A stretch of 36,859 nt of DNA from an uncultured Clostridia bacterium (GTDB lineage: Bacteria > Bacillota > Clostridia > Christensenellales > Aristaeellaceae), in contig CAMENN010000015.1 in NCBI GenBank assembly GCA_945928315.1, positions 1 to 36,859 on the forward strand, written 5' to 3'. A program made the translations under genes and the position numbers. Position 1 is the first letter of the stretch. The number at the start of each line of letters is the position of its first letter. The notes beneath the pieces were generated by a model. The model saw nothing but the letters and a program-made list of their open reading frames with translations, was not told where the DNA came from and did not search any database. Shown here piece by piece: positions 10,564 to 31,052 of this stretch.

Positions 10564-10592
10564 CTCATGTTCAAGAGATCGGGCGCAGGACG

Positions 10593-11063: not shown

Positions 11064-11085
11064 CGTGGGGCCGCCTTTCTGCCGC

Positions 11086-11643: not shown

Positions 11644-11740
11644 GTAAGAATCCCTCCATAGTATGGTTTCAGTATTGGAGACTGCAAGGCATCGTCCGCG
11701 TACGGGCCATGCCGTATCAGCGATGTGCACTCATAGAACA

Positions 11741-11769
11741 ATATTAGCACGTCTCGGCCGAAAGATCAA
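11741..11769 (-). promoter_or_regulatory. Sigma-A promoter of efp
   Basis: On the minus strand TTGATC (11764-11769) and TAATAT (11741-11746) are separated by 17 bp, with a TGC extended -10. It lies just after the sigK stop codon and about 100 nt before efp. Confidence 0.65.
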
Positions 11770-11784
11770 GTATTTTCGTCGTGT

Positions 11785-12540
11785 TCAGGGCTTCTTCCTG
11801 TTTTTCTGTTCATTTTGGACAGGCATCTTGGCCGGTTCCGGGTCCGCCGCGCCGCTCTCGAACGCGTGCTTGAGCCGTTCCATCGCCTTCTTCTCGATGC
11901 GAGAGATATAGGACCGCGAGACGCCCAGCTGCCGGGCGATCTCCTGCTGGGGATGCATCCGGCCGTCGAGCAGGCCATAGCGCAGCTCCAGCACGGTGCG
12001 CTCGCGCCCATGCAGCTGCGTCTGCACCAGGCGGCGCACGCTCTGCAGGCTGACGCGCCGCTCGACGGCCTCATGCACCGCCCCCTCGTCCGTGCCCAGC
12101 ACGTCGCTGAGCGTCATCTCGTTGCCCTCGCTGTCCACGCCGATGGGCTCGTGCAGCGAGACGTCGCCCCGCCGCTTCTGGCTCGCGCGCAGGCACATGA
12201 GGATCTCGTTCTCGATGCACCGCGCGCAGTAGGTGCTCAGCTGCGTGCCCGTGCCGGGCTTATAGGTATTGACGCCCTTGATCAGGCCGACCGTGCCGAT
12301 GGAGATCAGGTCGTCCGCATCGCAGCCCGGCACGGTGTATTTGCGGGCGATGTGTGCGCAGAGCCGCAGGTTGTGCTCGATGAGCGCCGCGCGCGCGCCG
12401 GCATCGCCCTGCGCCATACGCTCGAGCATCTGCGCCTCCTCCTCCCGTGAGAGCGGCTGCGGAAACGCATTGCCCCTCGCCATATAGCCCAGCGCAAAGA
12501 GCGCATCCTTCAGGAAAAACAAGACAAGCTGCTCAATCAT
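11785..12540 (-). CDS. sigK: RNA polymerase sporulation sigma factor SigK
   Basis: Sigma-K directs late mother-cell transcription during sporulation (coat, cortex and release). The 251-residue product has a hydrophobic pro-sequence (about 1-20) followed by the hallmark NAFPQPLS. Region 2 includes HNLRLCAHIARKY and DLISIGTVGLIKG, and region 4 has an HTH (QQEIARQLGVSRSYISRIEKKA). The pro-sequence implies activation by a SpoIVFB-type membrane protease. The coding sequence is continuous, with no skin prophage interrupting it. The ATG at 12540 has a GGGGTG ribosome site 5-6 nt upstream. I could not assign a mother-cell promoter in the upstream gap. Confidence 0.95.
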   Translation of the reverse strand: MIEQLVLFFLKDALFALGYMARGNAFPQPLSREEEAQMLERMAQGDAGARAALIEHNLRLCAHIARKYTVPGCDADDLISIGTVGLIKGVNTYKPGTGTQLSTYCARCIENEILMCLRASQKRRGDVSLHEPIGVDSEGNEMTLSDVLGTDEGAVHEAVERRVSLQSVRRLVQTQLHGRERTVLELRYGLLDGRMHPQQEIARQLGVSRSYISRIEKKAMERLKHAFESGAADPEPAKMPVQNEQKNRKKP

Positions 12541-12812
12541 GCGATCACCCCGGACAGTCTATGCGTGAGACAGCGGGCAGGTGACTGCGGAGAAATCCGG
12601 AGAAAAGCGCCGCAGCGTCGGCAGGGTTTTCCCCAGAAGGCAAAGCAATTCACAGCATACCCGAAGTCTGCGGTCAGCATGTATCGCCCGATATGGACGG
12701 GTTTTGACAACCCCGGAGCATTCATCGCTATGCTCGCCAACGGCAGTGACCGAACCGTCCGCGTTGACAGGGCAGCATGAAGAAAAGCTGAACGACGGGC
12801 TTCTTCATGTGT
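12541..12812. other. Gene-less gap between sigK and the CRISPR array
   Basis: I see no supported gene, RNA or strong terminator here. The short frames crossing it show no recognisable protein. A weak imperfect stem at about 12778-12808 (GAAGAA pairing with TTCTTC) lies just after the leader-distal end of the array, but it lacks a convincing U-tract. Confidence 0.5.
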
Positions 12813-12845
12813 GTCTGTAATTCACGCACCCGCAAAAGGTAAGCG
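12813..12845 (-). repeat. Possible decayed terminal CRISPR repeat
   Basis: ATTCACGCACCCGC (12819-12832) resembles the repeat core ATCCACGCACCCCG with small changes, then the match breaks down. It lies 18-30 nt outside the last perfect repeat, at the leader-distal end where degenerate repeats are common. The match is partial and could be chance. Confidence 0.35.
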
Positions 12846-12863
12846 CGTTGCTCAGATGAGCTG

Positions 12864-15438
12864 ATTTCAATCCACGCACCCCGTGCGGGGTGCGACGCGT
12901 CAAACGGCTGGCGCGTAGGCCGCAACCCCATATTTCAATCCACGCACCCCGTGCGGGGTGCGACGCACAGTCCGTCGGCCCGTAATCCCGCTCCCACATT
13001 TCAATCCACGCACCCCGTGCGGGGTGCGACGCCCATCTGCCAGTGCCGCCCCGCGCTGTCCGTATTTCAATCCACGCACCCCGTGCGGGGTGCGACCAAC
13101 TACGGCATGTGCGACGGCTTCTACGCCCAGAATTTCAATCCACGCACCCCGTGCGGGGTGCGACGATGAGTACGACCACCAGCGCAACGTGACGATCCGG
13201 ATTTCAATCCACGCACCCCGTGCGGGGTGCGACCAATGTCGGCGCTGGCCTGGATCGCGTTTTTGCCATTTCAATCCACGCACCCCGTGCGGGGTGCGAC
13301 CCGGCGAGATGAGGCGAAATTCCGCGAGAAGATGATTTCAATCCACGCACCCCGTGCGGGGTGCGACATCGCCGTTTTCATTCGTCTGTACTTTAGTGCG
13401 GATTTCAATCCACGCACCCCGTGCGGGGTGCGACTACATGCCCAACCTGACGGCACCGGGCGCGGTATTTCAATCCACGCACCCCGTGCGGGGTGCGACA
13501 CGATCCGGGCATATGCCGCCATCCGCTACACGGCATTTCAATCCACGCACCCCGTGCGGGGTGCGACCTGACGATCCTACTGTCTGGATACTTTTACAGC
13601 CATATTTCAATCCACGCACCCCGTGCGGGGTGCGACCCTCCGCGCCGGTAGCGGCGCGAATATCGGCAAGAATTTCAATCCACGCACCCCGTGCGGGGTG
13701 CGACGACGAGCCGCGCAGCCGGATCATGACGCCGCGTATATTTCAATCCACGCACCCCGTGCGGGGTGCGACCTTGCAGGGCATACATGCAACTGGTCAA
13801 GCCTTATTTCAATCCACGCACCCCGTGCGGGGTGCGACGGCATTGCCGGGGCTGTATCCTCTGCCGTCAAATTTCAATCCACGCACCCCGTGCGGGGTGC
13901 GACTTCCGTTCTGGGTAAATACCTCCACCCAATCGTATTTCAATCCACGCACCCCGTGCGGGGTGCGACGAGGAGCACGCGAGCGAATACAAGACCATCG
14001 CGATTTCAATCCACGCACCCCGTGCGGGGTGCGACATCGCGCGCGCCGGGCACAATAGAAGAGATTGAAATTTCAATCCACGCACCCCGTGCGGGGTGCG
14101 ACGCGCAGCCGGGAGGAAGGCCCGCGCACCCCAAAATTTCAATCCACGCACCCCGTGCGGGGTGCGACGCGCAGCACATGCCCATCGAGGGCAAGCCGGA
14201 AATATTTCAATCCACGCACCCCGTGCGGGGTGCGACTCCGTCTGCTCCACGTCGCTCTGGTGCGCGGTATTTCAATCCACGCACCCCGTGCGGGGTGCGA
14301 CTCCATCCGGTCGATGTCTTCGCCCGTGATGGCAATTTCAATCCACGCACCCCGTGCGGGGTGCGACAGAACAGCACAGCGCGGTGATGATACAGCTCGT
14401 TATTTCAATCCACGCACCCCGTGCGGGGTGCGACTCGGGGTGGCTCCCCCGTAATTGTGGAACTGTATATTTCAATCCACGCACCCCGTGCGGGGTGCGA
14501 CGATTTAATATGTAAGCTGTACAAAGACAAAACTATTTCAATCCACGCACCCCGTGCGGGGTGCGACAGAAGGCAACAAAATTAGCCCGATTGCATCTAT
14601 GATTTCAATCCACGCACCCCGTGCGGGGTGCGACGATCAATTATGTTGATCTTCCGGCGGTGGATGATATTTCAATCCACGCACCCCGTGCGGGGTGCGA
14701 CGCGATTATTAACCCACCCATCCCGAATAAGTAAAATTTCAATCCACGCACCCCGTGCGGGGTGCGACCACAAATGCAGCTGAACAGCAGAATGTTGCAG
14801 CAATTTCAATCCACGCACCCCGTGCGGGGTGCGACGAGGAATGGACGGACGAGAGCCAAGGAATCTCAATTTCAATCCACGCACCCCGTGCGGGGTGCGA
14901 CTAATTATCTTCGCGCACGCCTGTTGATGGACTGATTTCAATCCACGCACCCCGTGCGGGGTGCGACAGGTTTCCGCGCACAGCGCCAGCTTATCCGCAT
15001 AATTTCAATCCACGCACCCCGTGCGGGGTGCGACTTGGTTGTGATTTGGTTACAATGATATTATACCTATTTCAATCCACGCACCCCGTGCGGGGTGCGA
15101 CCAGTGAGGACGGCAATTCGGGAGTACATCCACTATTTCAATCCACGCACCCCGTGCGGGGTGCGACCGAATACATCATCTACGACATCAATACGCTGCT
15201 GATTTCAATCCACGCACCCCGTGCGGGGTGCGACGCCCGAGCTGCTCCATCAGCTCCTTTTCCCTGGTATTTCAATCCACGCACCCCGTGCGGGGTGCGA
15301 CATGAGCCGTAGTCCACACGCCCCATGCGTACGTCAATTTCAATCCACGCACCCCGTGCGGGGTGCGACAGGGGCTTGCCGCTGAGCTGGCAGCAATTTG
15401 AGGAGATTTCAATCCACGCACCCCGTGCGGGGTGCGAC
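12864..15438 (-). CRISPR. Type I-C CRISPR array, 39 repeats and 38 spacers
   Basis: By eye I count 39 copies of a 33-nt repeat that appear identical throughout. On the plus strand each starts ATTTCAATCCACGC and ends GGGGTGCGAC, with an internal palindrome CGCACCCC-GTGC-GGGGTGCG. Spacers are 32-36 nt, mostly 33-35. The array is read leftward, in the same direction as the cas genes: in that sense each repeat begins GTCGCACC and ends GGATTGAAAT, the usual type I-C crRNA 5' handle. The leader-proximal, newest end is therefore at 15438 and the oldest at 12864. The leader-distal repeat is still perfect. I saw no duplicated spacer. Spacers near the leader (from about 14435 rightward) are visibly richer in A and T than the older ones. 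Confidence 0.98.
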
Positions 15439-17589: not shown

Positions 17590-18467
17590 CAGATCATCCG
17601 CGTGCAGGTCACGCCCTCCGGGATCGACGCCTCATCGACAGTCACCTCATAATCTTGATAGCGCCGGGGCACATCGACGGTCTTCTTCACCTGCACCGCA
17701 TCGAACAGCTTGTACGCCGGCGCATCGCCGAGCTCACCGCTGTGCCTGAAGACGATCAGCTCGCGCACGGCCATCTTGCCGCGGGCGGCGGACCGGTCCT
17801 CGTCGAACATGTGGATGATCGCCTGCCACAGCAGCGCCAGATCGTCCTCGCTGAAGCCCGTCGTCTTGCGCGCCAGGTTCGCGGAGACGAAGCCCTCCGC
17901 GCGGTACAGGCCGTAGGGGACGATGTACTTGCGGCCCATCTCCGTGCCCTTGCGCTCGGCATCCGCCTCCGTGGTGATCGCCACGCGGGTGATCGTCACC
18001 TCCTGCGGCACGATGGGGTCCACGCTGCGCGCAAAGCCCAGCTGAACCGGCCCGCGCACCTGTCCGCAATTCAGCGCAGCCTTCACAAACGTGGTCATCA
18101 CCGCGCCGAACGTGCGGATGTCGTAGAAGTTGCGGCACATGAAGTCGCGGATCTTCCGGTCGAGATCCGGGTCGTCCTTCTTTGCCTTCTTGACGTCCGT
18201 CACGCCCAGGTACTCATATGCCCTGGCGTCACTGCGGTTGAGCGGCACGCTGTCCCTGATGTAGATGCCGTAGCCCGGCTCGCCCTCCCGGACGATCTCC
18301 ACATAGTTGCGGATCTTGCGCTTGAGGCACACGTCCGTCACCAGTCCGAGGCCCGTCTCCGGGTCGATGCGCGGCATGTTGCCCGCATCCGGATCGCCGT
18401 TGGGGTTGCCGTTTTCCACGTCAAAGAGAATCACGAAGTCATACCGGTTCCTGATCGCCTCAGCCAT
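17589..18467 (-). CDS. cas7c: Type I-C Cascade backbone protein Cas7c (Csd2)
   Basis: Cas7c polymerises along the crRNA to form the backbone of the type I-C interference complex. The 292-residue product contains the family signature FDVENGNPNGDPDAGNMPR near the N terminus and the later FGAVMTT and GPVQLGFARSVDPI blocks typical of Csd2. I chose the ATG at 18467, with AAGGAGG 9 nt upstream. It overlaps the end of cas8c by 8 nt. The frame extends 18 codons further upstream, but those residues do not look like Cas7. Confidence 0.97.
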   Translation of the reverse strand: MAEAIRNRYDFVILFDVENGNPNGDPDAGNMPRIDPETGLGLVTDVCLKRKIRNYVEIVREGEPGYGIYIRDSVPLNRSDARAYEYLGVTDVKKAKKDDPDLDRKIRDFMCRNFYDIRTFGAVMTTFVKAALNCGQVRGPVQLGFARSVDPIVPQEVTITRVAITTEADAERKGTEMGRKYIVPYGLYRAEGFVSANLARKTTGFSEDDLALLWQAIIHMFDEDRSAARGKMAVRELIVFRHSGELGDAPAYKLFDAVQVKKTVDVPRRYQDYEVTVDEASIPEGVTCTRMI

Positions 18468-20217
18468 TGTCCCTGTCCTCCTTCTTTTCGTAACGCTTCT
18501 GTCTCTGATGGTAATAGCCAAGCTGGAAAACCCCCTGATCCGAGAGCCCCAGCCGGTCAGGATACGCCTCGTCGAGCATGCCCATGAGCTCCTGCAGCTG
18601 CCTGTTCATGTGAACGGCCAGGCCGCCGTCCAGCTTTTTGAGATGTGCCTGTGCCAGACGAATCAGCACAGGGAACACCACGGCGGGCGTGCAGCAGGCC
18701 GAATTGAAATACCTGTCGCGGATCGTCGTATTGATGCCGGGGTTTGCCGCCTCCTGAATGCCCTCCAGCACGGCGAACATCCGCCCCAGCACATAGGGGG
18801 CATACCGGGTTTCCTCATTGAGCTTCACTTGTGCCACCTCCAACACATTCTCCCTGTTTTTTCCTTCAGGTGTATTTCTGAGCAGGCAGGCCTTGATGAT
18901 CGCCGCCTTGCCGCGCGTCACCTCGTGCTCTGCGCGGATGCGCAGCTGCACCTGCTGGTACAGCGTCGCGGGGTACATGCCGCCGGTCAGGATGGCGGTC
19001 ACCACGTCGCCCGCCAAATGCGGCGAAGCCTCCTTGCTGCTCGCATTGGGATTGACCGTCTCCCGGAGCATCGCGAAGACGGGGATCGTCTCCCAGGGAT
19101 CGTTCTTTGGACGGACGATCTCCATTCGCTGGTGATGCGCGGTCATGCGTGCAGAAAACGCCCCGAAGCTGTCCTGCAGGAAGAAGCGCACAGAGAGGCG
19201 CGCCGAATTGGGCGCAAGGCCGAGGATATAGAACCTGTTCTCCGGCTGGAGCGGGACGTCTTCCCAGCTCACGCTCCGGCCCTCCGCCAGCGCGCGCATG
19301 ACGCCCAGCAGATCCCTGTCCTGCACACGCTGATCGTTGCCCAGCATGGCCGAGAACAGATCGGCATACGCCTCCTCAGCATCCTCCGCCCAGAAGACGA
19401 TCGTGGTATCGCCCAGATGCATCCTGTGATCCCTGTCCGAAAGCAGCCGATTGAGCGCAGCGCCATAGGCGAACGCCGCATACTTGCCCACCGGCGCGTT
19501 CAGCCCCTGCCCGCCGTCATGCGCATAGGATTCAAACGCGGGCGCATTGAACGAGACGAGCGATGCCCCCATTGCCTGCGCATCCTGCACGCCCTTGATC
19601 GAGGGGTGCAGCCGGGCGACCTCAGAAGGCTCGCCGGTCACCAGACAGCGCATGACCTGCGAACCCTCTGCCGGTGCCTCATAGGCCCTCTGCCAGGCGG
19701 CACGGATGTCCGGGACATCCTGTGCAGAGGTCATCCCCACCTGAAAGATCAGATTGGCCGCTGCCAGCTCACCGAGCAGCGGCGCAACCAGCGGGTGCTC
19801 GGCTGCCTTTGCCGGGTTCCACGTTTCAAAAAAGCGCAGGATGGCCGCAGCGACAGGATCCGCAACGCCGTCAAGCACCGCGCGGTGCTTCTGCGCACAG
19901 GCTTCAAAACAGGCCAGCGCGCGTTCCGGCTTGCCCTTGCTGTCCACGCCCAGCATGTACGTTGCGTTGTCGCACAGGAAATTGGACGCAACGCCGCTGG
20001 AACGCTTCACCTGCTCCGGCACCTGCATCGTCCGCGGCGTCAGGACGGACTTCTTCCCGCTTTTCACCTCCTCGCGGAGGTCCTCAATCGCCCGCAGCTC
20101 GCCGCTTTCGCTGAGCCGGAGCGCAAAGGACACCCTGACGCTCTGCCACCCGGGCGCCTCGAGCCTCCCCTTTGCCGCCAGCTGTTCATAGTGGCGCACC
20201 AGCGCCTGCAGGATCAT
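18460..20217 (-). CDS. cas8c: Type I-C Cascade large subunit Cas8c (Csd1)
   Basis: Cas8c is the large subunit that recognises the PAM and helps unwind the target; in type I-C an internal translation start in this gene can also supply the small subunit. The 585-residue length is normal for Csd1. Recognisable family features include FLCDNATYMLG (about residues 97-108), the central SLVSFNAPAFESYAHDGGQG region, and WAEDAEEAYADLF. Its start codon overlaps the cas5c stop by 4 nt. I did not identify the internal start for a Cas11c product with confidence. Confidence 0.96.
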   Translation of the reverse strand: MILQALVRHYEQLAAKGRLEAPGWQSVRVSFALRLSESGELRAIEDLREEVKSGKKSVLTPRTMQVPEQVKRSSGVASNFLCDNATYMLGVDSKGKPERALACFEACAQKHRAVLDGVADPVAAAILRFFETWNPAKAAEHPLVAPLLGELAAANLIFQVGMTSAQDVPDIRAAWQRAYEAPAEGSQVMRCLVTGEPSEVARLHPSIKGVQDAQAMGASLVSFNAPAFESYAHDGGQGLNAPVGKYAAFAYGAALNRLLSDRDHRMHLGDTTIVFWAEDAEEAYADLFSAMLGNDQRVQDRDLLGVMRALAEGRSVSWEDVPLQPENRFYILGLAPNSARLSVRFFLQDSFGAFSARMTAHHQRMEIVRPKNDPWETIPVFAMLRETVNPNASSKEASPHLAGDVVTAILTGGMYPATLYQQVQLRIRAEHEVTRGKAAIIKACLLRNTPEGKNRENVLEVAQVKLNEETRYAPYVLGRMFAVLEGIQEAANPGINTTIRDRYFNSACCTPAVVFPVLIRLAQAHLKKLDGGLAVHMNRQLQELMGMLDEAYPDRLGLSDQGVFQLGYYHQRQKRYEKKEDRDNG

Positions 20218-20870
20218 CGAACCACCTCACAATCGCGCAGGTCGATCACACCGTTTGTCATCTGCGCCCGGAAGAACATCGGCGTGATGTTCTCCGGGTC
20301 GCTGTAATCCATGTCGTAAAGCATCCAGCCCAGGTCGCGCGTTTCCGGGATTGCGGGGATTTCGCCGCCTTCCCACAGACCGAAGTGCGCCGTGCACTCC
20401 CGCGTGCCCAGATAGGGCTGGCTGTAGCACGCGCCCTTCCGGAGTCTGCGCGTGACGATGTCCTGGAACTTGCCCGGATTGTCGCTGGCGTTCGCCCTGT
20501 CCGTCATGTCAAAGTGCGCCTCGATCACATAGTGCACATCCCTGAGCATCATCGCCGCGCGCTGCTGAATGTCCTCCGACGCCGCGATATACAGCGGCTC
20601 CTGTCCGCCGGTCATCGCCGTGCGCACGGAGGACGAGAGGATTTTGCTCTTCACCTCGTTTCGCCTGAAGTTGGTGAACGTGATGGGCGAGAGCACGTAG
20701 ATCCTGTCGATCCTCCATGCCAAACCCGGGTGGAAATACACCGATTCCACCATTCCCCGCGCCGCGCTGGGCGTGGGCACGTCGTAGGAGACGCGCTCCA
20801 CCTTCATCTCCGGCCGTGTAAAGCACGCGTAGTCCCCCCAGACCTCCATCCTGATGGACAAATCCTGCAC
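20214..20870 (-). CDS. cas5c: Type I-C crRNA-processing protein Cas5c
   Basis: In type I-C, Cas5c replaces Cas6: it cuts the pre-crRNA in the repeat and caps the 5' handle within Cascade. The 218-residue product has the N-terminal WGDYACFTRPEMKVERVSYD block and PTPSAARGMVESVYFHP, both diagnostic for the family, then FRRNEVKSKI and VHYVIEAHF. The start is uncertain. The GTG at 20870 lies very close to its AGGAG; a TTG at 20861 would have better spacing, and an ATG at 20849 starts just before the conserved region. It is unusually far (about 350 nt) from cas3 because a dispersed element occupies the gap. Confidence 0.95.
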   Translation of the reverse strand: MQDLSIRMEVWGDYACFTRPEMKVERVSYDVPTPSAARGMVESVYFHPGLAWRIDRIYVLSPITFTNFRRNEVKSKILSSSVRTAMTGGQEPLYIAASEDIQQRAAMMLRDVHYVIEAHFDMTDRANASDNPGKFQDIVTRRLRKGACYSQPYLGTRECTAHFGLWEGGEIPAIPETRDLGWMLYDMDYSDPENITPMFFRAQMTNGVIDLRDCEVVR

Positions 20871-20890
20871 GCTCCTTTCTGCATTCTGTT

Positions 20891-21184
20891 CATACTCATC
20901 TCAAACAGAACCGAGATGTTCGATAACCGACCGTCAGGTAACGCTTCGCTCCCTGACTACTTTTTTCTTTGATCGCTTTGCGATGGGAACGATGGGGGAT
21001 TTCATCCCCCAAACCCCTAGCCTGGGACCGGAGCCTGCCGCCGCCTGTGGCGGATGAAGGCAGGCGGAGTGTCGGAAATCGCAAGGAGTGCCGTTTACGG
21101 CACGACTATGCGAGTTTCCCGGGTCCCCAGACCCCTTCTTCGCTTCGCGCTTATAGCTCGCTTTTATCTGAGAATAGTATCAAG
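20891..21184. repeat. Dispersed hairpin-rich element, copy B, between cas3 and cas5c
   Basis: This is the longer relative of the element at 4879-5055. The left 100 or so bases align without gaps (CATAC...CTCAAACAG, GTCAGGTAACGCTTCGCTCC, GATCGCTTTGCGAT), as does the right end (CTTCTTCGCTTCGCGC, then an AT-rich tail with GTATCA). The centre differs and is longer, with its own hairpins: GGGGGATTTCATCCCCC, CTGCCGCCGCCTGTGGCGG..., and GTGCCGTTTACGGCAC. Segments ending in ACCCC or ACTCCC recur after hairpins in both copies, so the centre looks modular. No transposase or clear target duplication is seen. Confidence 0.8.
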
Positions 21185-21217
21185 CATCCGTCAAAGCCGC
21201 ACATCCCGTGCAGCGGT

Positions 21218-23341
21218 TCACACAAAGATCTCCATGCCCGGCGTATCGCACAGGCAAAGTCCCTTCTCCGGATCATAGCTGCCCGCATCCGCGAGAATCA
21301 GGAAGCCGTCGGCCGTCTGCTGCACCCTGCCCGCACCCATCAGCTTCTGTGCGTCCTCGCGGTAGACATTCACGCTGTCCTGCTGCAGTCTGCGAATCGT
21401 TCTCCCGGTATAGCTTCCGTCGCACAGCGCGCCGATGAGCGCGCCGTTGTCCGGCGTCGGGATATACACAGGCACCGTGTCCGTCTCGATCAGCCTGAAG
21501 TGCTCCGCTGCCGTCCGGAAATTGAATGCCTCGCAGTCCGGGAGAATCCCCTTTCGGTCGATGAACTCACCCTTTGACCGGATCAGGTACCGGGAATACA
21601 GCTCAATCGCGCGCAGGCTGTCCATCTCGCTCTCCTCCTCGAGTGCATAGCGCATCGCCTGGAGGGGCTTGACGAACTGCTGCGGCATCCTTCCCTGCGT
21701 GCCGAACACGTGGACGACGCTCTGCGCCCGGCTGCGCCTGCCCTCGCGGTTGCACCGCCCCGCCGCCTGCAGGATGCTGTCGAGCCCAGCCTCCTCGCGC
21801 CAGACCGCCGGGAAGTCCACATCGACGCCCGCCTCGATCAGGCTGGTCGAAACCACGCGGCATGTCAGCCCGCGCGCCAGACGATCGCGGACCGTGCGGA
21901 TGACCGCCTTGCGATCGCCGGGCGTCATCAGCGTGGACAGGTGAAAGCGCCCCTCCCGGGGCAGGCCGTCCCAGAGGGCCTGCGCGCGCTTTTTCGTATT
22001 GACGACGCAGAGGACCTGCTTTTCCTGTGCCAGCGCCTGCAGAAGCGCGTCCTCGTCCATCACGCCCTCCTGCCGGTAGGTGACGCGCCGGAAGAACTCA
22101 TAGAGCGCCTGCGGCTGCTCCATGATCTCCGTGATGCGCAGCTCGGGCGCACAGTCGCGGAACAGATCGTCCAGCGCGGGCTGCGTCGCCGTGCAGAGCA
22201 CCGCCGTGGCGCCGTAATGGCGAACCAGCTCCGCGATGGCGTAGACGCAGGGCCGGAGGTAATCCAGCGGCATCATCTGCGCCTCATCCAGCACGATCAC
22301 GCTGTTCGCGATGCTGTGCAGCTTCCGGCATTTGCTCGTCGAGGCCGCGTAGAGCGACTCGAAGAACTGCACCGCCGTCGTCACGACGACCGGCGCGTCC
22401 CAGTTTTCCGTCGCCAGGCGCTTGCGGATCGCCTGCCGGGCGGCGGCGTCATCCAGATCGCCCTCCTCATATTCGACGCCCGAGTGATGCTCGAGCACGT
22501 TGTCCTCGCCCAGGATCTCCGCAAACTTGGCCGCGTTCTGCTCGATGATGCTCGTGTACGGCACGACATAGATCACGCGGTCGCAGCCATGCTCCGCCGC
22601 ATGCCGGAGCGCGAACGCCAGCGAGGAAACCGTCTTGCCGCCGCCCGTGGGCACCGTCAGCGTGTACAGCCCCTTCGGCCCTTCGCCCATCTGCCGGCAC
22701 CGGTTCAGGATGTTGCAGCGCCTTGCATTGAGCTCTGACTTCGCCGGAAACCACGGGGCAACGTAGGCGTCAAGCTTTTCCAGCAGGGTGCTCATGCTCT
22801 CCCCGCATGGCTGCCGCGGTCCCCGCATGAATGCCTCCGTGTCGAGGAAGTCCGCGTCCACCAGGCACGAAAACAGCATGCGCGTATAGAAGCTTCCCGC
22901 CAGTGCATCCATGCCGATCCATCCCGGCGCCGCCGCGGACGGGTCCGGCCGAATCTCTCTCTTCCACGCCGAATAGTCCTGCGGCCTGTATTTGAGCTTT
23001 CCCTGCAGCGTGCCGTCCGCGGGCGTGCTCCCCCGTCCGCCCGGATCGCTCAGCCCGCCGTGATGGCCCGCAATGGCGAACGCCGCATACAGATCCCGGA
23101 GATCCCGCGCGGCAATGGCCCCGGCGGAGGTGTGGTTCACCTTCGGCACATGCTCGGGGTCCGCCATCCTGCGCTGCACGTCCGGAGCGTACTTGCCGAT
23201 GTCGTGCAAAAGGCCCGTCCTTCCGGCATGCCCGCCCGCGCCGAACGCCTGCGCAAACTGCTCCGCCCGCTGCGCCACGCCCGTCAGGTGATCCCGCAGC
23301 GGCTGGATTTCTCCGTCCTCCCGCCTGTGTCCGATATACAT
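21218..23341 (-). CDS. cas3: Type I-C CRISPR helicase-nuclease Cas3
   Basis: Cas3 is recruited to Cascade-bound targets, then nicks and unwinds the DNA. The 707-residue product has an N-terminal HD nuclease with His18, His46-Asp47 (LLHDIGKYAP), His70 (VNHTSAG) and His93-His94. The superfamily 2 helicase follows, with Walker A PTGGGKT (231-237), DEAQ box (352-355), and the later motif QAAGRCNREGR. All motifs are intact, so interference should be possible. It is the first gene of the locus, under a near-consensus promoter, with AAAGGAG 8 nt before the start codon. The next gene, cas5c, starts about 350 nt downstream, beyond the dispersed element. Confidence 0.97.
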   Translation of the reverse strand: MYIGHRREDGEIQPLRDHLTGVAQRAEQFAQAFGAGGHAGRTGLLHDIGKYAPDVQRRMADPEHVPKVNHTSAGAIAARDLRDLYAAFAIAGHHGGLSDPGGRGSTPADGTLQGKLKYRPQDYSAWKREIRPDPSAAAPGWIGMDALAGSFYTRMLFSCLVDADFLDTEAFMRGPRQPCGESMSTLLEKLDAYVAPWFPAKSELNARRCNILNRCRQMGEGPKGLYTLTVPTGGGKTVSSLAFALRHAAEHGCDRVIYVVPYTSIIEQNAAKFAEILGEDNVLEHHSGVEYEEGDLDDAAARQAIRKRLATENWDAPVVVTTAVQFFESLYAASTSKCRKLHSIANSVIVLDEAQMMPLDYLRPCVYAIAELVRHYGATAVLCTATQPALDDLFRDCAPELRITEIMEQPQALYEFFRRVTYRQEGVMDEDALLQALAQEKQVLCVVNTKKRAQALWDGLPREGRFHLSTLMTPGDRKAVIRTVRDRLARGLTCRVVSTSLIEAGVDVDFPAVWREEAGLDSILQAAGRCNREGRRSRAQSVVHVFGTQGRMPQQFVKPLQAMRYALEEESEMDSLRAIELYSRYLIRSKGEFIDRKGILPDCEAFNFRTAAEHFRLIETDTVPVYIPTPDNGALIGALCDGSYTGRTIRRLQQDSVNVYREDAQKLMGAGRVQQTADGFLILADAGSYDPEKGLCLCDTPGMEIFV

Positions 23342-25844: not shown

Positions 25845-25894
25845 GCCCTGAACGCGCAAAAAGCGCTGGCATGCCGCCTGCGGCATCAGAAAGC

Positions 25895-25936
25895 AAAAAG
25901 CAGCGTCCCGCCGGATCGTCTCCGGGGAACGCTGCC
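25895..25936 (-). terminator. Intrinsic terminator after the esterase gene
   Basis: On the minus strand GCAGCGT...ACGCTGC forms a long stem with an inner CCGG-type pairing, followed by TTTTTGC. It begins 12 nt after the esterase stop codon and closes the flavoprotein-ferredoxin-esterase operon. Confidence 0.85.
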
Positions 25937-25947
25937 CTTTGGCTGTG

Positions 25948-27735
25948 TTATTCGCTCAGCGCATCGGCCATGATGCCGTCGATGTAGTCGTACAGATCCT
26001 GCACGTCGATCTCGGCGGGGCTGTGCGGCTGATCCCAGCTGACCTCAATGACAGAATCCTCAATCTCGTCCGCCGCGTAGGTCAGCAGCGCGTTGTGCAT
26101 CAGCCAGGCCGCCGGCAGGCCGTGATCGCCGTCCGCGGAGCCGATGTGGAAGCGCCAGTGCGGCGCGAGCGTGCTCGCCCAGTACGCGTCGTCATGGAGC
26201 ACGTAGTTCGCCGGGCTCATGATCTCCAGCAGCCTGGTGGCCTCGTCGTCCACATCCGCCGCGTAGGCATCCGCCAGACGGACGATGTAGTCATACTCCT
26301 CCGCGGTGAAGGCGTCGGAGTCCCTGTACTCCTCGACCATCTCGCCGAGCAGATCGCGCACGAGCACGCTGAAGTGCTTGCGGTTGCCGTCCGCATCCAC
26401 AAACGCGCTGCCCTCATTGCTCGCCTTGTTGTAGGAGTCGAGGCTCGGGCACATCTTGTTGCGGCTGATGAAGTTGCCCATGAACACGTCGTAGTCGGTG
26501 ATCGTCGCCGTCACGCCGTCCTCGGCCAGCTCAAGCCACGCATCCGCGCCGTAGTCGTCATAGAGATGCTGCACATACGCGGCGGCATCCGGATACTTCT
26601 CCTTGTCGGGCTTGGTCAGCTCATCATAGCGGGTGAGCCACTGGGTCAGGCCGTCGGAATAGAGCTGCACCAGGCCGGTGAAATACGCACCGTTGCGGCC
26701 GTCATCGCCCAGGTCGAAGCCCCAGCTCTGCACATAGTCCACATACCAGTCATAGAGCTTGGCCGCGAGCTCATCCTCGTGCGCGCCGCCGAGCACATTG
26801 TCACCGAAGGGATGGAAGTTGCCGCGGCCCACGGTGATCTGGTCGCTGATGTCGTTGCCGTACATATCCACGGCCATCGCGTTGAACAGGAAGTACTCCT
26901 GATTGCCCGCCTGGAACCACTCATACGCCGCATCCGCGGAGTCGAGATTCGTGATCGGGCAATAGCCCAGCACGATGAAGATGTCATCGGTCGCGTCCGC
27001 CGCGCCGATGTCGGCCAGATAGCCGTCATAGATCGCGGAGTTGCCGGAGGCGCCCAGCATCACGCCGACCGCACCGCCGGAGCTGTAGCCGTAGGAGACG
27101 ATGCGCTCCGCGTCGCCCGGGAGCACGTCGTTGTTGGCCTTCAGGTAGCGGATGCCCGCCTTAAGGTCCACCATGATCAGCGGAAGCTGGCCGATGTAGT
27201 GGCCCTCGGCGTCCACGGTATCCTTGCCGCGCGCGCCGACGCTCACCTGCACATAGCCCTCCTGCATGTAGGCGATGGTCACGTCCTGCACGGCGCTGGA
27301 GGAATAGCCGCCGCTGGTGTTGGTGTAGAGGATGGGCGCGGTGTCCGCCGTGTAGACGACGCCGTTGCTGCTGGTGACGCTGCCCTCGGCGCTCTTCACG
27401 ACCTTGCCGTCAGCTTCCTGCATATACGCCTCGGGCGCGTAGATCGCCATGTGCTCCACGGTGGGGTCCACCGGGGAAGCGCAGTAGACGACGTCCAGCA
27501 TATAATAGGAAACACCGGTGGCTTCATCCGTGACGAGCGCCCACTGATCGGCATAGTCCTCTGCGTTCAGGCTGTACGCGCCGTCCTCAGCAACAACCGG
27601 CACGGCGGCCTTGTGAATCGGTTCGGGCGTGGCAGCAGGCGCGGCGCCAAAGCCGCCGCTTTCCGCGAGGGAGACGCCGCACAGCAGGCTCAGCGCGAGC
27701 GCGGCTGCGAGGGAAGCCTTCATGATCTTCTTCAT
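25948..27735 (-). CDS. Exported tannase/feruloyl-esterase-like alpha/beta hydrolase
   Basis: The 595-residue product has a Sec signal peptide (about 1-24, cut near SLAES). An alpha/beta-hydrolase of the bacterial tannase type follows: YYMLDVVYCASPVDPTVEHM (77-96) and IYAPEAYM, the nucleophile motif GYSSG (216-220, Ser218), a late WRFHIGSADGDHG segment where the acid residue is expected, and EVSWDQPHSPAE with the likely catalytic His. Tannases hydrolyse galloyl esters, and relatives cleave feruloyl or chlorogenic esters. The substrate here is inferred, not known. It is the last gene of the operon after the flavoprotein and ferredoxin, and its start (AAGGA about 7 nt before the ATG) follows an intercistronic hairpin. 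The D-x-D-H-G segment differs from the D-x-D-T I recall for characterised tannases. Confidence 0.72.
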   Translation of the reverse strand: MKKIMKASLAAALALSLLCGVSLAESGGFGAAPAATPEPIHKAAVPVVAEDGAYSLNAEDYADQWALVTDEATGVSYYMLDVVYCASPVDPTVEHMAIYAPEAYMQEADGKVVKSAEGSVTSSNGVVYTADTAPILYTNTSGGYSSSAVQDVTIAYMQEGYVQVSVGARGKDTVDAEGHYIGQLPLIMVDLKAGIRYLKANNDVLPGDAERIVSYGYSSGGAVGVMLGASGNSAIYDGYLADIGAADATDDIFIVLGYCPITNLDSADAAYEWFQAGNQEYFLFNAMAVDMYGNDISDQITVGRGNFHPFGDNVLGGAHEDELAAKLYDWYVDYVQSWGFDLGDDGRNGAYFTGLVQLYSDGLTQWLTRYDELTKPDKEKYPDAAAYVQHLYDDYGADAWLELAEDGVTATITDYDVFMGNFISRNKMCPSLDSYNKASNEGSAFVDADGNRKHFSVLVRDLLGEMVEEYRDSDAFTAEEYDYIVRLADAYAADVDDEATRLLEIMSPANYVLHDDAYWASTLAPHWRFHIGSADGDHGLPAAWLMHNALLTYAADEIEDSVIEVSWDQPHSPAEIDVQDLYDYIDGIMADALSE

Positions 27736-27767
27736 GGGATTTCCTTTCTTTCCATTCAGAGGGAGGG

Positions 27768-27797
27768 CCTGCCGCCGCTTTTCACAGCGGCGGCAGG
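27768..27797 (-). promoter_or_regulatory. Perfect intercistronic hairpin between ferredoxin and esterase
   Basis: CCTGCCGCCGC (27768-27778) pairs perfectly with GCGGCGGCAGG (27787-27797) around an 8-nt loop. No U-tract follows in the direction of transcription, so it is not a standard terminator. It could block 3' exonucleases or slow RNA polymerase, so that ferredoxin and flavoprotein mRNA is more abundant than esterase mRNA. Confidence 0.7.
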
Positions 27798-27817
27798 TGT
27801 GGAGGCAGCCGGTCGAA

Positions 27818-28093
27818 TCAGGTCCTTTCGACGACGGGCTGCTCGAAGCGGTTGAGCGGCACGGTCGTGGCGGCGCGGTAGGCGGTCTGCGCATAGCCGT
27901 ACATGTCGTTGACGATGGTCAGCGAGCGGCCATAGCAGTTGACGAAGCACTGTCCGCAGCTCTGGCAGTTCTCGGGGAAGGCGATGACGGACTTGCGGTT
28001 CGCCTCATCGAAGCGGAAAACGTCCATCGGGCAGACCTTCACGCACTGACGGCAGCCGATGCACCTGTTGAGATCATATCTTGCAACGCTCAT
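27818..28093 (-). CDS. Two-cluster [4Fe-4S] ferredoxin
   Basis: The 91-residue product has two cysteine sets: CIGCRQCVKVCP (Cys11, 14, 17, 21) and CQSCGQCFVNC (Cys43, 46, 49, 53). That is enough for two [4Fe-4S] clusters. The layout resembles the ferredoxin subunit that accompanies AprA-type flavoproteins. It has no signal peptide of its own. The gene starts 24 nt after the flavoprotein stop codon, with AAAGGAG about 10 nt upstream, so it is the natural electron-transfer partner of that flavoprotein. About 35 residues follow the second cluster and have no recognised motif. Confidence 0.9.
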   Translation of the reverse strand: MSVARYDLNRCIGCRQCVKVCPMDVFRFDEANRKSVIAFPENCQSCGQCFVNCYGRSLTIVNDMYGYAQTAYRAATTVPLNRFEQPVVERT

Positions 28094-28117
28094 CGTGATA
28101 AGCTCCTTTCCGTGTGA

Positions 28118-30082
28118 TCACTTGCCCCAGCCGCTGCTGGCCTCCTCAGCCGGCAGGCCGAGCGTCTCGAGCTCGTTCGGGAAGTAATAGGTGTAGCGGG
28201 TCTTGTAGTCCGCGGTGAGGTCGCCCTTCCAGGAGTCCTTCACCGGCACACGCGCCACATCCACGCCGCCCTCGGCGTTCTTCTGCAGCGTGATGATGCA
28301 CAGGAAGTTCTCGTCGTCGCGGTACGGATAGTCGGTGCGGTAATGCACGCCGCGGGTCTCCTTGCGCTCGAGGCTGGCGCGCAGGGACAGCTCGGCGTTG
28401 AGGATCTTATGGCGCATTTCCAGGCACAGGCGCACGTCGTGATAGTTGGCCGCCTGCAGCTTGGGCATGACCTTGTCGCGCAGGACCTCCACCTGGGTGA
28501 GCGCGGCCCTCAGCGTCTCCTCGCTCTTGGTGATGTAGACCCAGTACGGGGACATGATGTTGACCAGCTGATCGCGCGCCCAGTTCGGATCGAAGCCGGA
28601 GGTGACGGACAGCGGCGCCTGAATGGTCGCAGTCTCCTCATCGATGCGCTCCTGAGAGATCGGGGTCAGCTCCGCGCCCGCGGCATAGGCCGCAGCGGCA
28701 GCGCCGGCACGATTACCCTGGATGGAGACGAAGTTAGAGGTGAAGCCCACGCCGCAGGGATACGCAGAGCCGGTCGGGCCGCAGGCGTTCATGCCGTCGC
28801 CGGCCACCCACAGGCCTTCGATGCTCGTCTTGCCCTCGAGGTCATCGAGGCCGCAGAACACGCCGTTGGTCAGGTGCGCGCCGAAGCCGACCGCAGCGCC
28901 GTAGATGTCGCCCTTGAACATCGTGTCGTTGTTCTTGCCGGTACGCACCTCGTTCGGGTTATCGGACTCGGAGCCGCCGCGGCGGGTGATGCTCTGGGTG
29001 GACATGTCCTCCATGGAGGAGCCGTCGTTGAGGGCGAGGCCGTTCATCGCCTTGGTGACGCGGTCGAGCACCATGACCTTCGCCTTGCTGGTGGCGTAGG
29101 AGATTGCGGTCTCCGGCGTGATGTCGCCGCCGCAGAGCCAGCAGTTGTCCAGGTACGTCCAGTTGTTGTTGAGGAACGCGTTGCCCGGCGCCCAGGAGAG
29201 CGTCATGTGGAAGTCGTCAAACTCCTTGCCGGCGATGGGCAGGCCCAGGTTGTAGGCGATGTACTCGCCGTCGAACGTGTCGCCGCCGGTCGGGAAGCCG
29301 GTCGGCTTGTAGCAGCCGCCGCCCATGCACATGATGACAGCCTTCGCGCTGCAGGTGATGATCGCGCCGCTGGGCACATGGAAGCCCACCGCGCCGCAGA
29401 CCCTGTTGTTCTCCACGATGACGTTGGTCACCATGGTGTAGTCGGCGTATTCGATGTTCTTCGCCTTGAGCACGGCCTCGAACTTGGTGCGGCGGTCATG
29501 CTCGGCATACGCCTCGCGGTAGCCCGCGAAGTCGTTCTTCTCGTAGTAGCCGGTCTCGGTCGCACGGTCATACTGATCGAGGATGCCCCAGTCGCGCAGG
29601 CGCTCATAGGTGCCCTTCGACTCCTTGAGCCAGACCTCGTACCAGTCCATGTTGCCGATGTACTCGCTGCCGTGGTTGATGCAGGTGCGCAGCGCGTCGA
29701 GATCATCGCCCATCTCCGGGTCCGCCCAGCGATGGGAGCTCGGCCACGGGCTCAGGCCGGAGTAGCCCGGATGGCCCTTATCGATCATGACGACCTTCTG
29801 GCCGGCGTCCGCAGCCGCAGCCGCAGCATTCAGGCCCGCAAAGCCGCCGCCGATGACCAGCACGTCGCAGGTGTATTTCGTCTTTTCAGGCGCAGCCGCC
29901 TCGGGGATGGGCAGCTCGCTCGTCACGCGCTGCGCCGCCTGCTCCGGCGTCTCGTTTTCCGCGCAGGCAGGAAGCACCATGCCCATAGCCGGCAGGGCGC
30001 TCAGGCCCACGCCCAGCATGCTCGCCTTCAGGAACGAACGGCGGGACATGCCCTCGGCGTCTTTCTTCATGTTGTTGCTCAT
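28118..30082 (-). CDS. Tat-exported FAD-dependent reductase (fumarate reductase/AprA-like flavoprotein)
   Basis: The 654-residue product begins with a twin-arginine signal (MSRRSFLKA, Arg14-Arg15) ahead of a hydrophobic stretch and a lipobox-like LPAC (Cys40), so it may be a Tat-exported lipoprotein. The FAD domain starts CDVLVIGGGFAGLNAAAA (72-89). Later blocks include LWVAGDGMNACGPTGSAYP and a C-terminal helical region with LRASLERKETRGVHYRTDYPYRDDENF, as in succinate dehydrogenase, fumarate reductase and AprA subunits. Relatives in gut anaerobes reduce fumarate-like acids, urocanate or cinnamates. The acceptor here is not shown. It is the first gene of the operon; the ATG at 30082 has GGGAGAG about 8 nt upstream. 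There is no heme domain, so the partner ferredoxin probably supplies electrons. Confidence 0.85.
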   Translation of the reverse strand: MSNNMKKDAEGMSRRSFLKASMLGVGLSALPAMGMVLPACAENETPEQAAQRVTSELPIPEAAAPEKTKYTCDVLVIGGGFAGLNAAAAAADAGQKVVMIDKGHPGYSGLSPWPSSHRWADPEMGDDLDALRTCINHGSEYIGNMDWYEVWLKESKGTYERLRDWGILDQYDRATETGYYEKNDFAGYREAYAEHDRRTKFEAVLKAKNIEYADYTMVTNVIVENNRVCGAVGFHVPSGAIITCSAKAVIMCMGGGCYKPTGFPTGGDTFDGEYIAYNLGLPIAGKEFDDFHMTLSWAPGNAFLNNNWTYLDNCWLCGGDITPETAISYATSKAKVMVLDRVTKAMNGLALNDGSSMEDMSTQSITRRGGSESDNPNEVRTGKNNDTMFKGDIYGAAVGFGAHLTNGVFCGLDDLEGKTSIEGLWVAGDGMNACGPTGSAYPCGVGFTSNFVSIQGNRAGAAAAAYAAGAELTPISQERIDEETATIQAPLSVTSGFDPNWARDQLVNIMSPYWVYITKSEETLRAALTQVEVLRDKVMPKLQAANYHDVRLCLEMRHKILNAELSLRASLERKETRGVHYRTDYPYRDDENFLCIITLQKNAEGGVDVARVPVKDSWKGDLTADYKTRYTYYFPNELETLGLPAEEASSGWGK

Positions 30083-30138: not shown

Positions 30139-30167
30139 AGTATATCATTTTGCCGGAGGGCTGGGTA
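30139..30167 (-). promoter_or_regulatory. Promoter of the flavoprotein-ferredoxin-esterase operon, weak -35
   Basis: On the minus strand TATACT (30139-30144) is a good -10, but the hexamer 17 bp upstream is TACCCA (30162-30167), a poor -35. A promoter of this kind usually needs an activator. A repeat of the LytTR-type operator lies 8 bp upstream of that -35. Confidence 0.65.
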
Positions 30168-30174
30168 TGCCGCC

Positions 30175-30260
30175 CGCTCAACTGGCGCGGCGGTGCGACC
30201 AAATGGCATTCCCCTCCCGTCCGCATGCCATTTGGTCGGAAAAAACTGCCATTCAGTCGG
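30175..30260. promoter_or_regulatory. Two diverging pairs of direct repeats, candidate LytTR operators
   Basis: On the plus strand TGCCATTTGGTCGG (30226-30239) is repeated as TGCCATTCAGTCGG (30247-30260), exactly 21 bp on. On the minus strand TGCCATTTGGTCG (30208 to 30196) is followed 21 bp later by CGCCAGTTGAGCG (30187 to 30175; 9 of 13 matches). The two inner copies also form a 14-bp inverted repeat. LytTR regulators such as ComE and AgrA bind direct repeats about 21-22 bp apart, so each pair faces one of the two diverging promoters. Confidence 0.7.
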
Positions 30261-30344: not shown

Positions 30345-31052
30345 ATGATTCGGGTTGCGATTGCGGAGGACATGGAATTCGAGCGGGAGGCGCTGCTGCG
30401 GCACCTGCGCCGCTACGAGCAGGAGCGCGGGGAAGCGTTTTCCTGCACGGTCTTTGAAAACGGCGAGGAGCTGCTGCGCGGCTACGGCGAGGGCTTTGAC
30501 CTCCTGCTGCTGGACGTGGCGATGCCCCGCGTGGACGGGCTGACCGCCGCGCGCCGCATCCGGCGGCAGGACGAGAAGGTCGTCATCCTTTTCATCACCT
30601 CCATGGTGCAGTACGCCGTGCAGGGCTACAGCGTGGACGCGCTCGACTTTCTCGTCAAGCCCGTGGGCTACACGGGCCTGCGGCTGCGGCTGGACCGCGC
30701 GCTCGCGCGCATCGCCCAGAGCCGTCCCCGGTGCATTCAGGTGCGCAGCGCCAGCGGGCTGTGCTCCGTGCCGGTGAGCGGCATCCGGTATGTGGAGACG
30801 TGCAGCCACCGCATCATCATCCACACCGGGGACGCGGAGCTGCTCACGGACATGACGATGAAGCAGATCGAATCGGAGCTCGCCCGGCAGCCGTTCTTCC
30901 GCTGCCACACCTCCTATCTGGTCAATTTCCGCTATGTGGACAGGATTCAGGGCAATGACATCGACGTGGACGGCCATCGCCTCTCCATCAGCCGCTACCG
31001 CCGCCGGGAGCTGATGGACGCCTGGACGGCCTATCTGGGGGCAAACGCATGA
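30345..31052 (+). CDS. LytTR-family response regulator
   Basis: The 235-residue product has a receiver domain (about 1-120) with the acidic pair Glu8-Asp9, phospho-acceptor Asp57 (LLLLDVAMP) and Lys105 (LVKPVG). A C-terminal LytTR DNA-binding domain follows (about 130-230), with FFRCHTSYLVNFRYVDRI and the late GHRLSISRYRRREL typical of the fold. The start ATG at 30345 has GGGAGG 7 nt upstream; the open frame extends upstream only through the promoter region. Its stop overlaps the kinase start by 4 nt. The diverging direct repeats at 30175-30260 are its most likely binding sites, so it should control both its own operon and the flavoprotein operon. Confidence 0.93.
   Translation: MIRVAIAEDMEFEREALLRHLRRYEQERGEAFSCTVFENGEELLRGYGEGFDLLLLDVAMPRVDGLTAARRIRRQDEKVVILFITSMVQYAVQGYSVDALDFLVKPVGYTGLRLRLDRALARIAQSRPRCIQVRSASGLCSVPVSGIRYVETCSHRIIIHTGDAELLTDMTMKQIESELARQPFFRCHTSYLVNFRYVDRIQGNDIDVDGHRLSISRYRRRELMDAWTAYLGANA

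What the first reader, a model, noticed from the sequence alone, without database searches (positions are those of the whole stretch)
25948..30082. Exported esterase, ferredoxin and Tat flavoprotein in one operon: candidate cleave-then-respire system
The sequence shows three leftward genes under one promoter and one terminator: a Tat-signal FAD reductase, a 2x[4Fe-4S] ferredoxin and a Sec-signal tannase/feruloyl-esterase-like hydrolase. Known biology: gut anaerobes use exported fumarate reductase-like flavoproteins to reduce cinnamate-type and related acids, and tannase-family enzymes release phenolic acids from esters. Inference: both exported enzymes act in sequence, the esterase freeing an unsaturated phenolic acid (for example caffeate from chlorogenate) and the flavoprotein reducing it as an electron acceptor. 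I do not know of a described operon with this exact composition.
Basis: partly seen in the sequence, partly recalled or inferred. Interest (0 to 1): 0.72.

Follow-up and report, generated by a model that had tools for sequence, protein, structure and literature searches.

The report
Exported tannase coupled to flavin reductase
A gut anaerobe keeps one gene set for a secreted tannin-cutting esterase and a secreted flavin/iron-sulphur reductase, and such pairs recur in unrelated bacteria, which suggests (but does not prove) that plant tannins are cut outside the cell and a product is used to dump electrons.

Summary
In detail: three leftward genes (Tat-signal FAD flavoprotein 30082-28118, 2x[4Fe-4S] ferredoxin 28093-27818, exported esterase 27735-25948) with a strong terminator. 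I add a LytTR-type promoter shared with five relatives and a hairpin before the esterase. The pairing is not private: ferredoxin follows flavoprotein in 22 of 22 readable cases; a tannase-type gene lies within 10 kb in 6 of 21 flavoprotein genomes (expected 0.27), with six label changes on the tree. The esterase is tannase-like with triad and all three gallate-binding residues; its best-matching crystallised relative cuts gallate and protocatechuate esters, not chlorogenate, caffeate or ferulate esters. The flavoprotein is nearest AprA/SdhA, has no FMN_bind match, and has Tyr at fumarate reductase's substrate-Arg position. Caffeate respiration is therefore unlikely. Best reading: secreted AprAB-like reductase plus gallate-type esterase, fed by an Rnf complex with a seven-FMN RnfG, using a tannin-derived compound as electron sink. 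Coupling is well supported; acceptor, direction and electron route are inferred.

The parts
28118..30082 (-). Tat-signal FAD flavoprotein, 654 aa, AprA/SdhA-type (FAD_binding_2 plus Succ_DH_flav_C; no FMN_bind match)
   Evidence: Tat motif; 23 other family members aligned in A2
27818..28093 (-). 2x[4Fe-4S] ferredoxin, 91 aa, weakly AprB/HgcB-like, no signal peptide seen; probable partner subunit
   Evidence: directly downstream of the flavoprotein in 22 of 22 cases where the sequence can be read
25948..27735 (-). tannase_B-like serine esterase with Sec-type N-terminus, 595 aa; triad S218/D535/H571, gallate-binding K427/E441/D537
   Evidence: AlphaFold2 model (pLDDT 84) whose 14 best PDB matches are all tannase chains
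30226..30253 (-). LytTR-type direct repeat, two AATGGCA units 21 nt apart
   Evidence: same 21-nt period and 106-nt distance to the -10 in 6 of 6 loci; 1 of 500 shuffles of the window region scores as well
30139..30147 (-). extended -10 element (TGATATACT)
   Evidence: found in 6 of 6 loci at the same distance; not listed by the plain consensus scan
27768..27797 (-). 12-bp hairpin between ferredoxin and esterase, no T-run
   Evidence: 82-nt gap z -3.1, 0 of 200 shuffles fold as well
25892..25944 (-). intrinsic terminator of the operon
   Evidence: -37 kcal/mol, z -6.6
30345..31052 (+). divergent LytTR response regulator, likely regulator of the operon
   Evidence: Pfam LytTR 5e-19 and Response_reg 1e-16; same divergent neighbour in L014, L015, L016, L017, L033
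31049..32377 (+). GHKL-type sensor kinase, partner of the regulator
   Evidence: Pfam HATPase_c_5 1e-23; matched in the same five loci

Best explanation
The operon builds an extracytoplasmic 'cut and reduce' unit. (1) The esterase is secreted and splits galloyl (or protocatechuoyl) esters of plant tannins: inferred from family, fold and complete active-site residues. (2) The flavoprotein and ferredoxin form an AprAB-like pair: inferred from invariant adjacency. The ferredoxin has no visible signal of its own, so it would have to be carried out with the flavoprotein through Tat. (3) In this genome electrons would reach the pair from reduced ferredoxin through an Rnf complex whose RnfG-type protein has at least seven FMN-binding domains; these genes are shown, the route is inferred. 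(4) The FAD then reduces a tannin-derived compound as an electron sink: the freed acid or a product of it, or the de-esterified alcohol part. The compound is unknown; an aromatic or quinoid group is my guess ahead of a dicarboxylate or cinnamate. (5) The neighbouring LytTR two-component system switches the unit on through the direct-repeat box: inferred from conserved sites.
For: Ferredoxin follows the flavoprotein in 22 of 22 readable cases. Tannase_B matches (E<=1e-10) in 15 of 21 flavoprotein genomes and 0 of 14 controls, against 62 of 200 in the window's own family (includes the window and G048) and 27 of 200 in the family of G828 (includes G828). At E<=1e-40, counted by hand from those lists: 14 of 21 against 31 of 198 and 17 of 199 (Fisher p 1.5e-6 and 4e-9). 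Linked within 10 kb in 6 of 21 genomes, expected 0.27, P 7e-8; the six need six label changes on the flavoprotein tree. Same gene order in G048 of another genus. Other esterase families are also neighbours: EstA_Ig_like in L021, L023 (cytosolic forms) and L030 (exported form), COesterase in L012. NAD(P)H-type modules sit beside cytosolic members (L022, L034: Pyr_redox_2; L012: XdhB/GltD-like). All six active-site residues of a gallate esterase present. TatC in 13 of 13 genomes classed as exported. FMN_bind matches higher in exported-type genomes (MWU p 0.009; 12 against 8 genomes); G000 has 30. Rnf cluster with 7 FMN_bind in the RnfG-type protein.
Against: No experiment; the acceptor is unknown and the direction (reductase or dehydrogenase) is not shown. 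Close relatives L015, L016, L017, L019, L033 have the flavoprotein pair without a tannase-like gene in the fetched stretch (BLAST; other esterases there not excluded), and G935, G938, G950, like G939, G948 and G949, have no tannase_B match at all: 6 of 21. The esterase scores 247.5 bits against the curated tannase_B cut-off of 300. Three of the linked tannase-like proteins elsewhere (L012, L030, L034) have lost the third gallate-binding residue. The divergent LytTR regulator is not found at G048, the one other locus with the same three-gene order. The hairpin before the esterase and a promoter-like site at the ferredoxin could uncouple expression. TatC does not separate the forms well: 5 of 8 cytosolic-form genomes have it too (p 0.04). 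FMN_bind has exceptions: G939 (exported) 0, G942 (cytosolic) 16. No UbiD-type gallate decarboxylase was found in the window's genome or G048, so the fate of gallate is open.
Confidence: 0.5

Rival explanations
1. One reading: the esterase frees caffeate or another hydroxycinnamate (for example from chlorogenate) and the flavoprotein reduces its side-chain double bond as a respiratory acceptor.
For: Both proteins carry export-type N-termini. Extracytosolic PF00890 enzymes that reduce fumarate, urocanate and methacrylate are known (PMC8238504, passages). The esterase also matches Pfam BD-FAE, a model whose name I recall as referring to feruloyl esterases.
Against: Gallate-binding residues intact; the F. 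nucleatum tannase fails on chlorogenate, caffeate, ferulate, sinapinate and p-coumarate esters (PMC5828091). Flavoprotein nearest AprA/SdhA, no FMN_bind match, FrdA-Arg position is Tyr/Phe in 24 of 24.
Confidence: 0.1
2. Shared trigger, separate jobs: both belong to a response to plant polyphenols; the esterase removes toxic tannins or releases sugar, while the flavoprotein acts on a compound that is not made by the esterase.
For: The same flavoprotein (70-78% identity) occurs without a tannase-like neighbour and, in three genomes, without any tannase_B match. Esterases of several unrelated families are neighbours.
Against: Six changes of the linkage label on the tree and linkage far above chance argue for a shared substrate rather than a loose regulon.
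Confidence: 0.28
3. The flavoprotein is a dehydrogenase: it oxidises a tannin-derived compound and passes electrons through the ferredoxin to an acceptor.
For: The superfamily includes succinate dehydrogenase and L-aspartate oxidase; the NAD(P)-linked modules beside cytosolic members could run either way.
Against: For the exported members no electron acceptor outside the cell is evident, and most of their genomes are rich in FMN_bind proteins, a marker of extracytosolic electron transfer (G939 has none).
Confidence: 0.1

Closest known systems
Subtype B bacterial tannases (TanLp of L. plantarum, F. nucleatum 6yq4, C. butyricum CbTan2 7q6y)
   Same: Fold (14 best Foldseek matches), GxSxG serine, Asp/His, gallate-binding Lys/Glu/Asp, Cys near the active site (residue roles from PMC4233993 and PMC8958541, passages)
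   Different: Longer (595 aa; solved chains matched are 452-480 aa), an insert near 281-315 that is modelled with low confidence, 24-28% identity, bits below NCBIfam's cut-off, co-operonic with a reductase
Adenylylsulfate (APS) reductase AprAB and the PAPS reductase of M. thermolithotrophicus
   Same: AprA is the best profile match among solved structures; flavoprotein gene followed by a 2x[4Fe-4S] ferredoxin gene; the ferredoxin weakly matches aprB
   Different: Tat signal, 18% identity, far below the curated aprA and aprB cut-offs; AprA substrate residues not tested
Extracytosolic fumarate-reductase-like respiratory reductases (FrdA of Listeria, UrdA, cinnamate-type reductases)
   Same: PF00890 FAD domain, export signal, host genome rich in flavin-based electron transfer
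   Different: No FMN_bind match; a ferredoxin gene next door instead; substrate-Arg position Tyr/Phe
Tannin catabolic operons with gallate decarboxylase (LpdB/LpdC-type UbiX/UbiD)
   Same: In same-genus genome G177 a tannase_B-like gene stands beside a UbiD gene (Pfam) and a UbiX-like gene (by eye), next to a remnant 86-91% identical to part of the window's esterase
   Different: No UbiD match in the window's genome; a reductase pair stands beside its esterase

Membership tests
Subtype B tannase | GxSxG nucleophile with Asp and His | tested here: met
   S218, D535, H571 in alignment A5 of 33
Subtype B tannase | Gallate-binding Lys, Glu, Asp | tested here: met
   K427, E441, D537; roles from PMC4233993 and PMC8958541
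Subtype B tannase | Fold of solved tannases | tested here: met
   Foldseek E 4e-33 to 7e-28, TMt 0.78-0.84 for the 14 tannase chains
Subtype B tannase | Curated NCBIfam score (300 bits) | tested here: not met
   247.5 bits; so filed as tannase_B-like, not as a certified tannase
Subtype B tannase | Hydrolysis of gallate esters | not testable with these tools
   no assay
APS reductase AprAB | FAD alpha subunit and 2x[4Fe-4S] beta subunit encoded together | tested here: met
APS reductase AprAB | Curated aprA/aprB scores | tested here: not met
   aprA 53.7 against 641.75 bits; aprB 29.2 against 135.65
APS reductase AprAB | AMP/sulfate-binding residues of AprA | not tested
   the cap region does not align and parts of the model's active-site region are low-confidence
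Fumarate/urocanate-type respiratory reductase | Substrate-carboxylate Arg (recalled: E. coli FrdA Arg390) | tested here: not met
   position read off the profile alignment to SdhA is Tyr in 21 and Phe in 3 of 24
Fumarate/urocanate-type respiratory reductase | FMN_bind electron-input domain in the same protein | tested here: not met
   no FMN_bind match at E<=0.1; ferredoxin next door instead
Fumarate/urocanate-type respiratory reductase | Export signal | tested here: met
   Tat motif; weak Pfam TAT_signal 0.014, under its cut-off; TatC in genome
LytTR two-component regulation | LytTR regulator plus GHKL kinase, direct repeats about 21 nt apart upstream of the target (spacing recalled) | tested here: met
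   binding itself not testable here

The most novel reading that the evidence does not exclude
Tannin respiration: a secreted AprAB-like flavoprotein-ferredoxin enzyme, not of the fumarate/urocanate-reductase line, reduces a phenolic compound that a co-encoded secreted gallate esterase sets free, with electrons exported by a multi-flavin Rnf complex. Related esterase-reductase modules would have come together several times, in gut Clostridia, Lachnospiraceae, Eggerthellaceae and Spirochaetota.
Probability: 0.3. Interest if true: 0.8.

Novelty: new variant of a known kind. Interest (0 to 1): 0.57.

Why it matters
Herbivore and human gut anaerobes meet large amounts of tannins, and the reductive enzymes that use polyphenols as electron acceptors are largely unassigned. 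This locus ties a predictable enzyme activity (galloyl ester cleavage) to an uncharacterised reductase family that also occurs in Adlercreutzia equolifaciens strain DFI.6.87, so the acceptor can be sought with a short, rational panel. It would also give an example of an exported flavoprotein that takes electrons through a separate ferredoxin subunit instead of a covalent flavin or haem domain.

Tried and rejected
Considered and rejected: (a) pairing private to this genome: refuted by G048 and by linkage elsewhere. (b) Flavoprotein as a urocanate/flavocytochrome-type reductase: structure and profile searches put AprA, SdhA and FrdA first. (c) Gallate decarboxylation in the same genome: no UbiD match (E<=1e-5, G177's UbiD as query) in G000 or G048, present in G177 and G828; G000 is 93% complete, so absence is not certain. 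(d) An inverted repeat in the window's promoter region looked like the operator, but none was found in seven related upstream regions; the direct repeat with fixed spacing is the shared element (in L016 it is weak: 129 of 500 shuffles score as well).

Led nowhere: literature searches for a tannase-reductase operon or an exported AprA-like reductase. I saw listings and abstract starts only, and not all papers found were listed (for example 15 of 49, 12 of 54, 10 of 32, 8 of 53). None listed showed such an operon. The library holds only openly licensed PMC papers; the 2024 paper I had in mind on gut respiratory reductases is not held. In the flavoprotein model (pLDDT 76) several stretches that I take for active-site loops are below 50, so I draw no catalytic residues from it. 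Correction: my first notebook entry calls 6yq4 the C. butyricum tannase; it is the F. nucleatum enzyme.

Limits: the per-genome tannase counts in the linkage test were merged by hand, and the 24-kb target is my choice. The E<=1e-40 counts were made by hand. The FMN_bind comparison left out G938, whose flavoprotein lacks its N-terminus; that genome was counted among the 13 'exported' for TatC and its row (L019) among the 15 'exp' rows of the tree. The six promoters come from related loci, so part of their likeness is descent. Flavoprotein genomes are named by NCBI title, backgrounds by GTDB family. L036 (23% identity) was dropped; L018 and L025 are the same contigs as G048 and G828 and were not counted twice; L027 and L035 come from the same MAG as L020. 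For A5 I gave 29 of the 38 BLAST-listed proteins (two left out were duplicates, seven were further, similar ones) plus four others.


Full report
WHAT IS THERE. The first encodes a 654-aa flavoprotein with a twin-arginine signal, an FAD_binding_2 domain and the C-terminal domain of the succinate dehydrogenase/fumarate reductase flavoproteins. The second encodes a 91-aa ferredoxin with two CxxCxxCxxxC motifs and no visible signal. The third, starting at 27735, encodes a 595-aa esterase with a Sec-type N-terminus (by eye) that matches NCBIfam subtype B tannase at 3.4e-73, though under its curated cut-off. A very stable terminator ends the operon (z -6.6). A 12-bp hairpin without T-run lies between ferredoxin and esterase (gap z -3.1).

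REGULATION. The plain promoter scan found nothing upstream of the flavoprotein, but one 9-of-12 match at the ferredoxin start. Comparison with five close relatives did find a shared element: two AATGGCA-like repeats 21 nt apart, and an extended -10 element exactly 106 nt downstream of the first repeat, in 6 of 6 loci. Shuffles score as well in 1, 13, 0, 129, 0 and 0 of 500 for the window, L014, L015, L016, L017 and L033; L016 is therefore weak. The divergent neighbour is a LytTR response regulator followed by a GHKL kinase; both are matched in the same place in all five of these relatives. G048 and L019 gave no match to the regulator. I infer that the LytTR system controls the operon.

THE ESTERASE. 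An AlphaFold2 model from 33 sequences (pLDDT 84) has tannase chains as its 14 best PDB matches, with a drop from E about 1e-28 to 1e-7 at the next. Serine, aspartate and histidine of the triad (S218, D535, H571) and the three gallate-binding residues (K427, E441, D537) are all present; the roles are taken from PMC4233993 and PMC8958541 (passages). The F. nucleatum tannase, the window esterase's best PDB sequence match, was active in a panel of 27 esters only on gallate and protocatechuate esters; chlorogenate, methyl caffeate, ferulates, sinapinate and p-coumarate are listed as not cut (PMC5828091, abstract and passages). I therefore expect gallate or protocatechuate as product.

THE FLAVOPROTEIN AND FERREDOXIN. 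By profile (24 sequences) the best solved relative is AprA (1.2e-33), ahead of SdhA, PAPS reductase, L-aspartate oxidase and FrdA; flavocytochrome fumarate reductases and urocanate reductase follow far behind. Foldseek on a pLDDT-76 model agrees in kind (FrdA, SdhA, PAPS reductase, AprA). The position aligned with the substrate Arg of FrdA/SdhA (role recalled) is Tyr in 21 and Phe in 3 of 24; Y141, R197, K286, E287, W308, Y310, C410, H548 and R551 are invariant in 24 of 24. The ferredoxin follows directly in 22 of 22 readable cases (L014 and L026 end inside the flavoprotein). Of the 24 rows, 14 show a Tat motif, 9 are cytosolic forms, and 1 (L019) has a truncated N-terminus.

HOW WIDESPREAD. 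The flavoprotein is rare: at E<=1e-40, 2 of 200 genomes of the window's family, 1 of 396 of the order, 2 of 391 of the class, the window's genome included each time. A scan of a collection of 84,980 species genomes gave 23 loci: Oscillospiraceae and Lachnospiraceae MAGs, other Clostridia, Acidobacteriaceae, a Spirochaeta, two Adlercreutzia and Raoultibacter (L036 dropped as too distant). That scan rests on two short peptide patterns, so the list is not complete.

IS THE PAIRING REAL? The same order flavoprotein-ferredoxin-esterase occurs in G048, another genus of the family, which has a second tannase-like gene upstream. Tannase-like genes also lie within 10 kb in G828, Spirochaeta UBA5339, Lachnospiraceae SIG272 and Adlercreutzia equolifaciens. 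That makes 6 of 21 genomes, against 0.27 expected (P 7e-8), and the six need six label changes on the tree. Tannase_B matches occur in 15 of 21 flavoprotein genomes, against 62 of 200 and 27 of 200 in two background families and 0 of 14 controls; 6 of the 21 have none. Other esterase families are neighbours too: EstA_Ig_like and Esterase in L021 and L023, COesterase in L012, EstA_Ig_like in L030. In A. equolifaciens three further FAD_binding_2 proteins lie between or just beyond the two genes; one has a Pfam TAT_signal match under that model's cut-off, the other two have twin arginines by eye.

ELECTRON SUPPLY. The window's genome has TatC and 30 FMN_bind matches, and a contig with RnfC (Pfam), an RnfD-like frame (by eye) and an RnfG-type protein with seven FMN_bind domains that runs off the contig end (RnfD and RnfG named by position and recalled sequence). 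Multi-flavinylated RnfG proteins have been proposed to pass electrons to other extracytosolic acceptors (PMC8238504, passages). FMN_bind matches are more numerous in genomes with the exported form (p 0.009), with exceptions both ways: G939 (exported) has 0 and G942 (cytosolic) has 16. TatC is in 18 of 21: 13 of 13 classed as exported and 5 of 8 cytosolic. Cytosolic forms L012, L022 and L034 have NAD(P)H-type modules next door. This fits a reductase, but direction is not shown.

VERDICT. The composition and its recurrence are solid. The particular chemistry proposed (caffeate from chlorogenate) is unlikely. A gallate-type esterase coupled to an AprAB-like exported reductase is the best reading; the acceptor remains unknown. 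Evidence against a strict in-series pathway is that several close relatives keep the reductase without a tannase. None of the papers listed by my literature searches (an openly licensed library, partial listings) showed such an operon.

Noticed in passing
L002:1417-2304 (own genome G000:C71): A second flavoprotein-ferredoxin locus in the same genome in which the flavoprotein keeps its Tat signal and part of the C-terminal domain but has lost the FAD region in between; it looks like a decaying paralogue, with the ferredoxin still open.
   Followed up: partly
L067:7545-7802 and 8462-13366 (G177:C11, same genus): A remnant 86-91% identical to part of the window's esterase lies next to a run of genes: an alpha/beta-hydrolase-looking frame and a UbiX-like frame (both by eye), UbiD (Pfam) and another tannase-like esterase. 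The genus has also used a gallate-decarboxylase-like arrangement.
   Followed up: partly
L089:1-4705 (own genome G000:C25): Rnf gene cluster with an RnfG-type protein carrying at least seven FMN-binding domains; G000 and the genome of L014 have 30 and 31 FMN_bind matches.
   Followed up: partly
L012:7149-8486, L022:12372-13544, L023:5938-7209, L026:6012-7202: A lactonase-type beta-propeller protein (PF10282 shown for L012; the others by position and look only) stands just upstream of cytosolic flavoproteins, hinting at a lactone in that pathway.
   Followed up: no
L081:4319-18053 (Adlercreutzia equolifaciens): Three further FAD_binding_2 proteins, a tannase-like gene whose product looks like a lipoprotein (by eye) and a LuxR-type regulator beside the AprA-like flavoprotein pair.
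   Followed up: partly
window 18463-23341: CRISPR-associated Csd1 and Cas3-like helicase genes, minus strand; type I-C from recall.
   Followed up: no
window 30194-30240: An inverted repeat with 16-bp arms (one mismatch) overlaps the second LytTR repeat; not found in seven related upstream regions.
   Followed up: partly
window 28073-28101: Promoter-like match (9 of 12) on the minus strand at the ferredoxin start; not far from what chance gives (3 sites found, 1.0 expected in the region).
   Followed up: no
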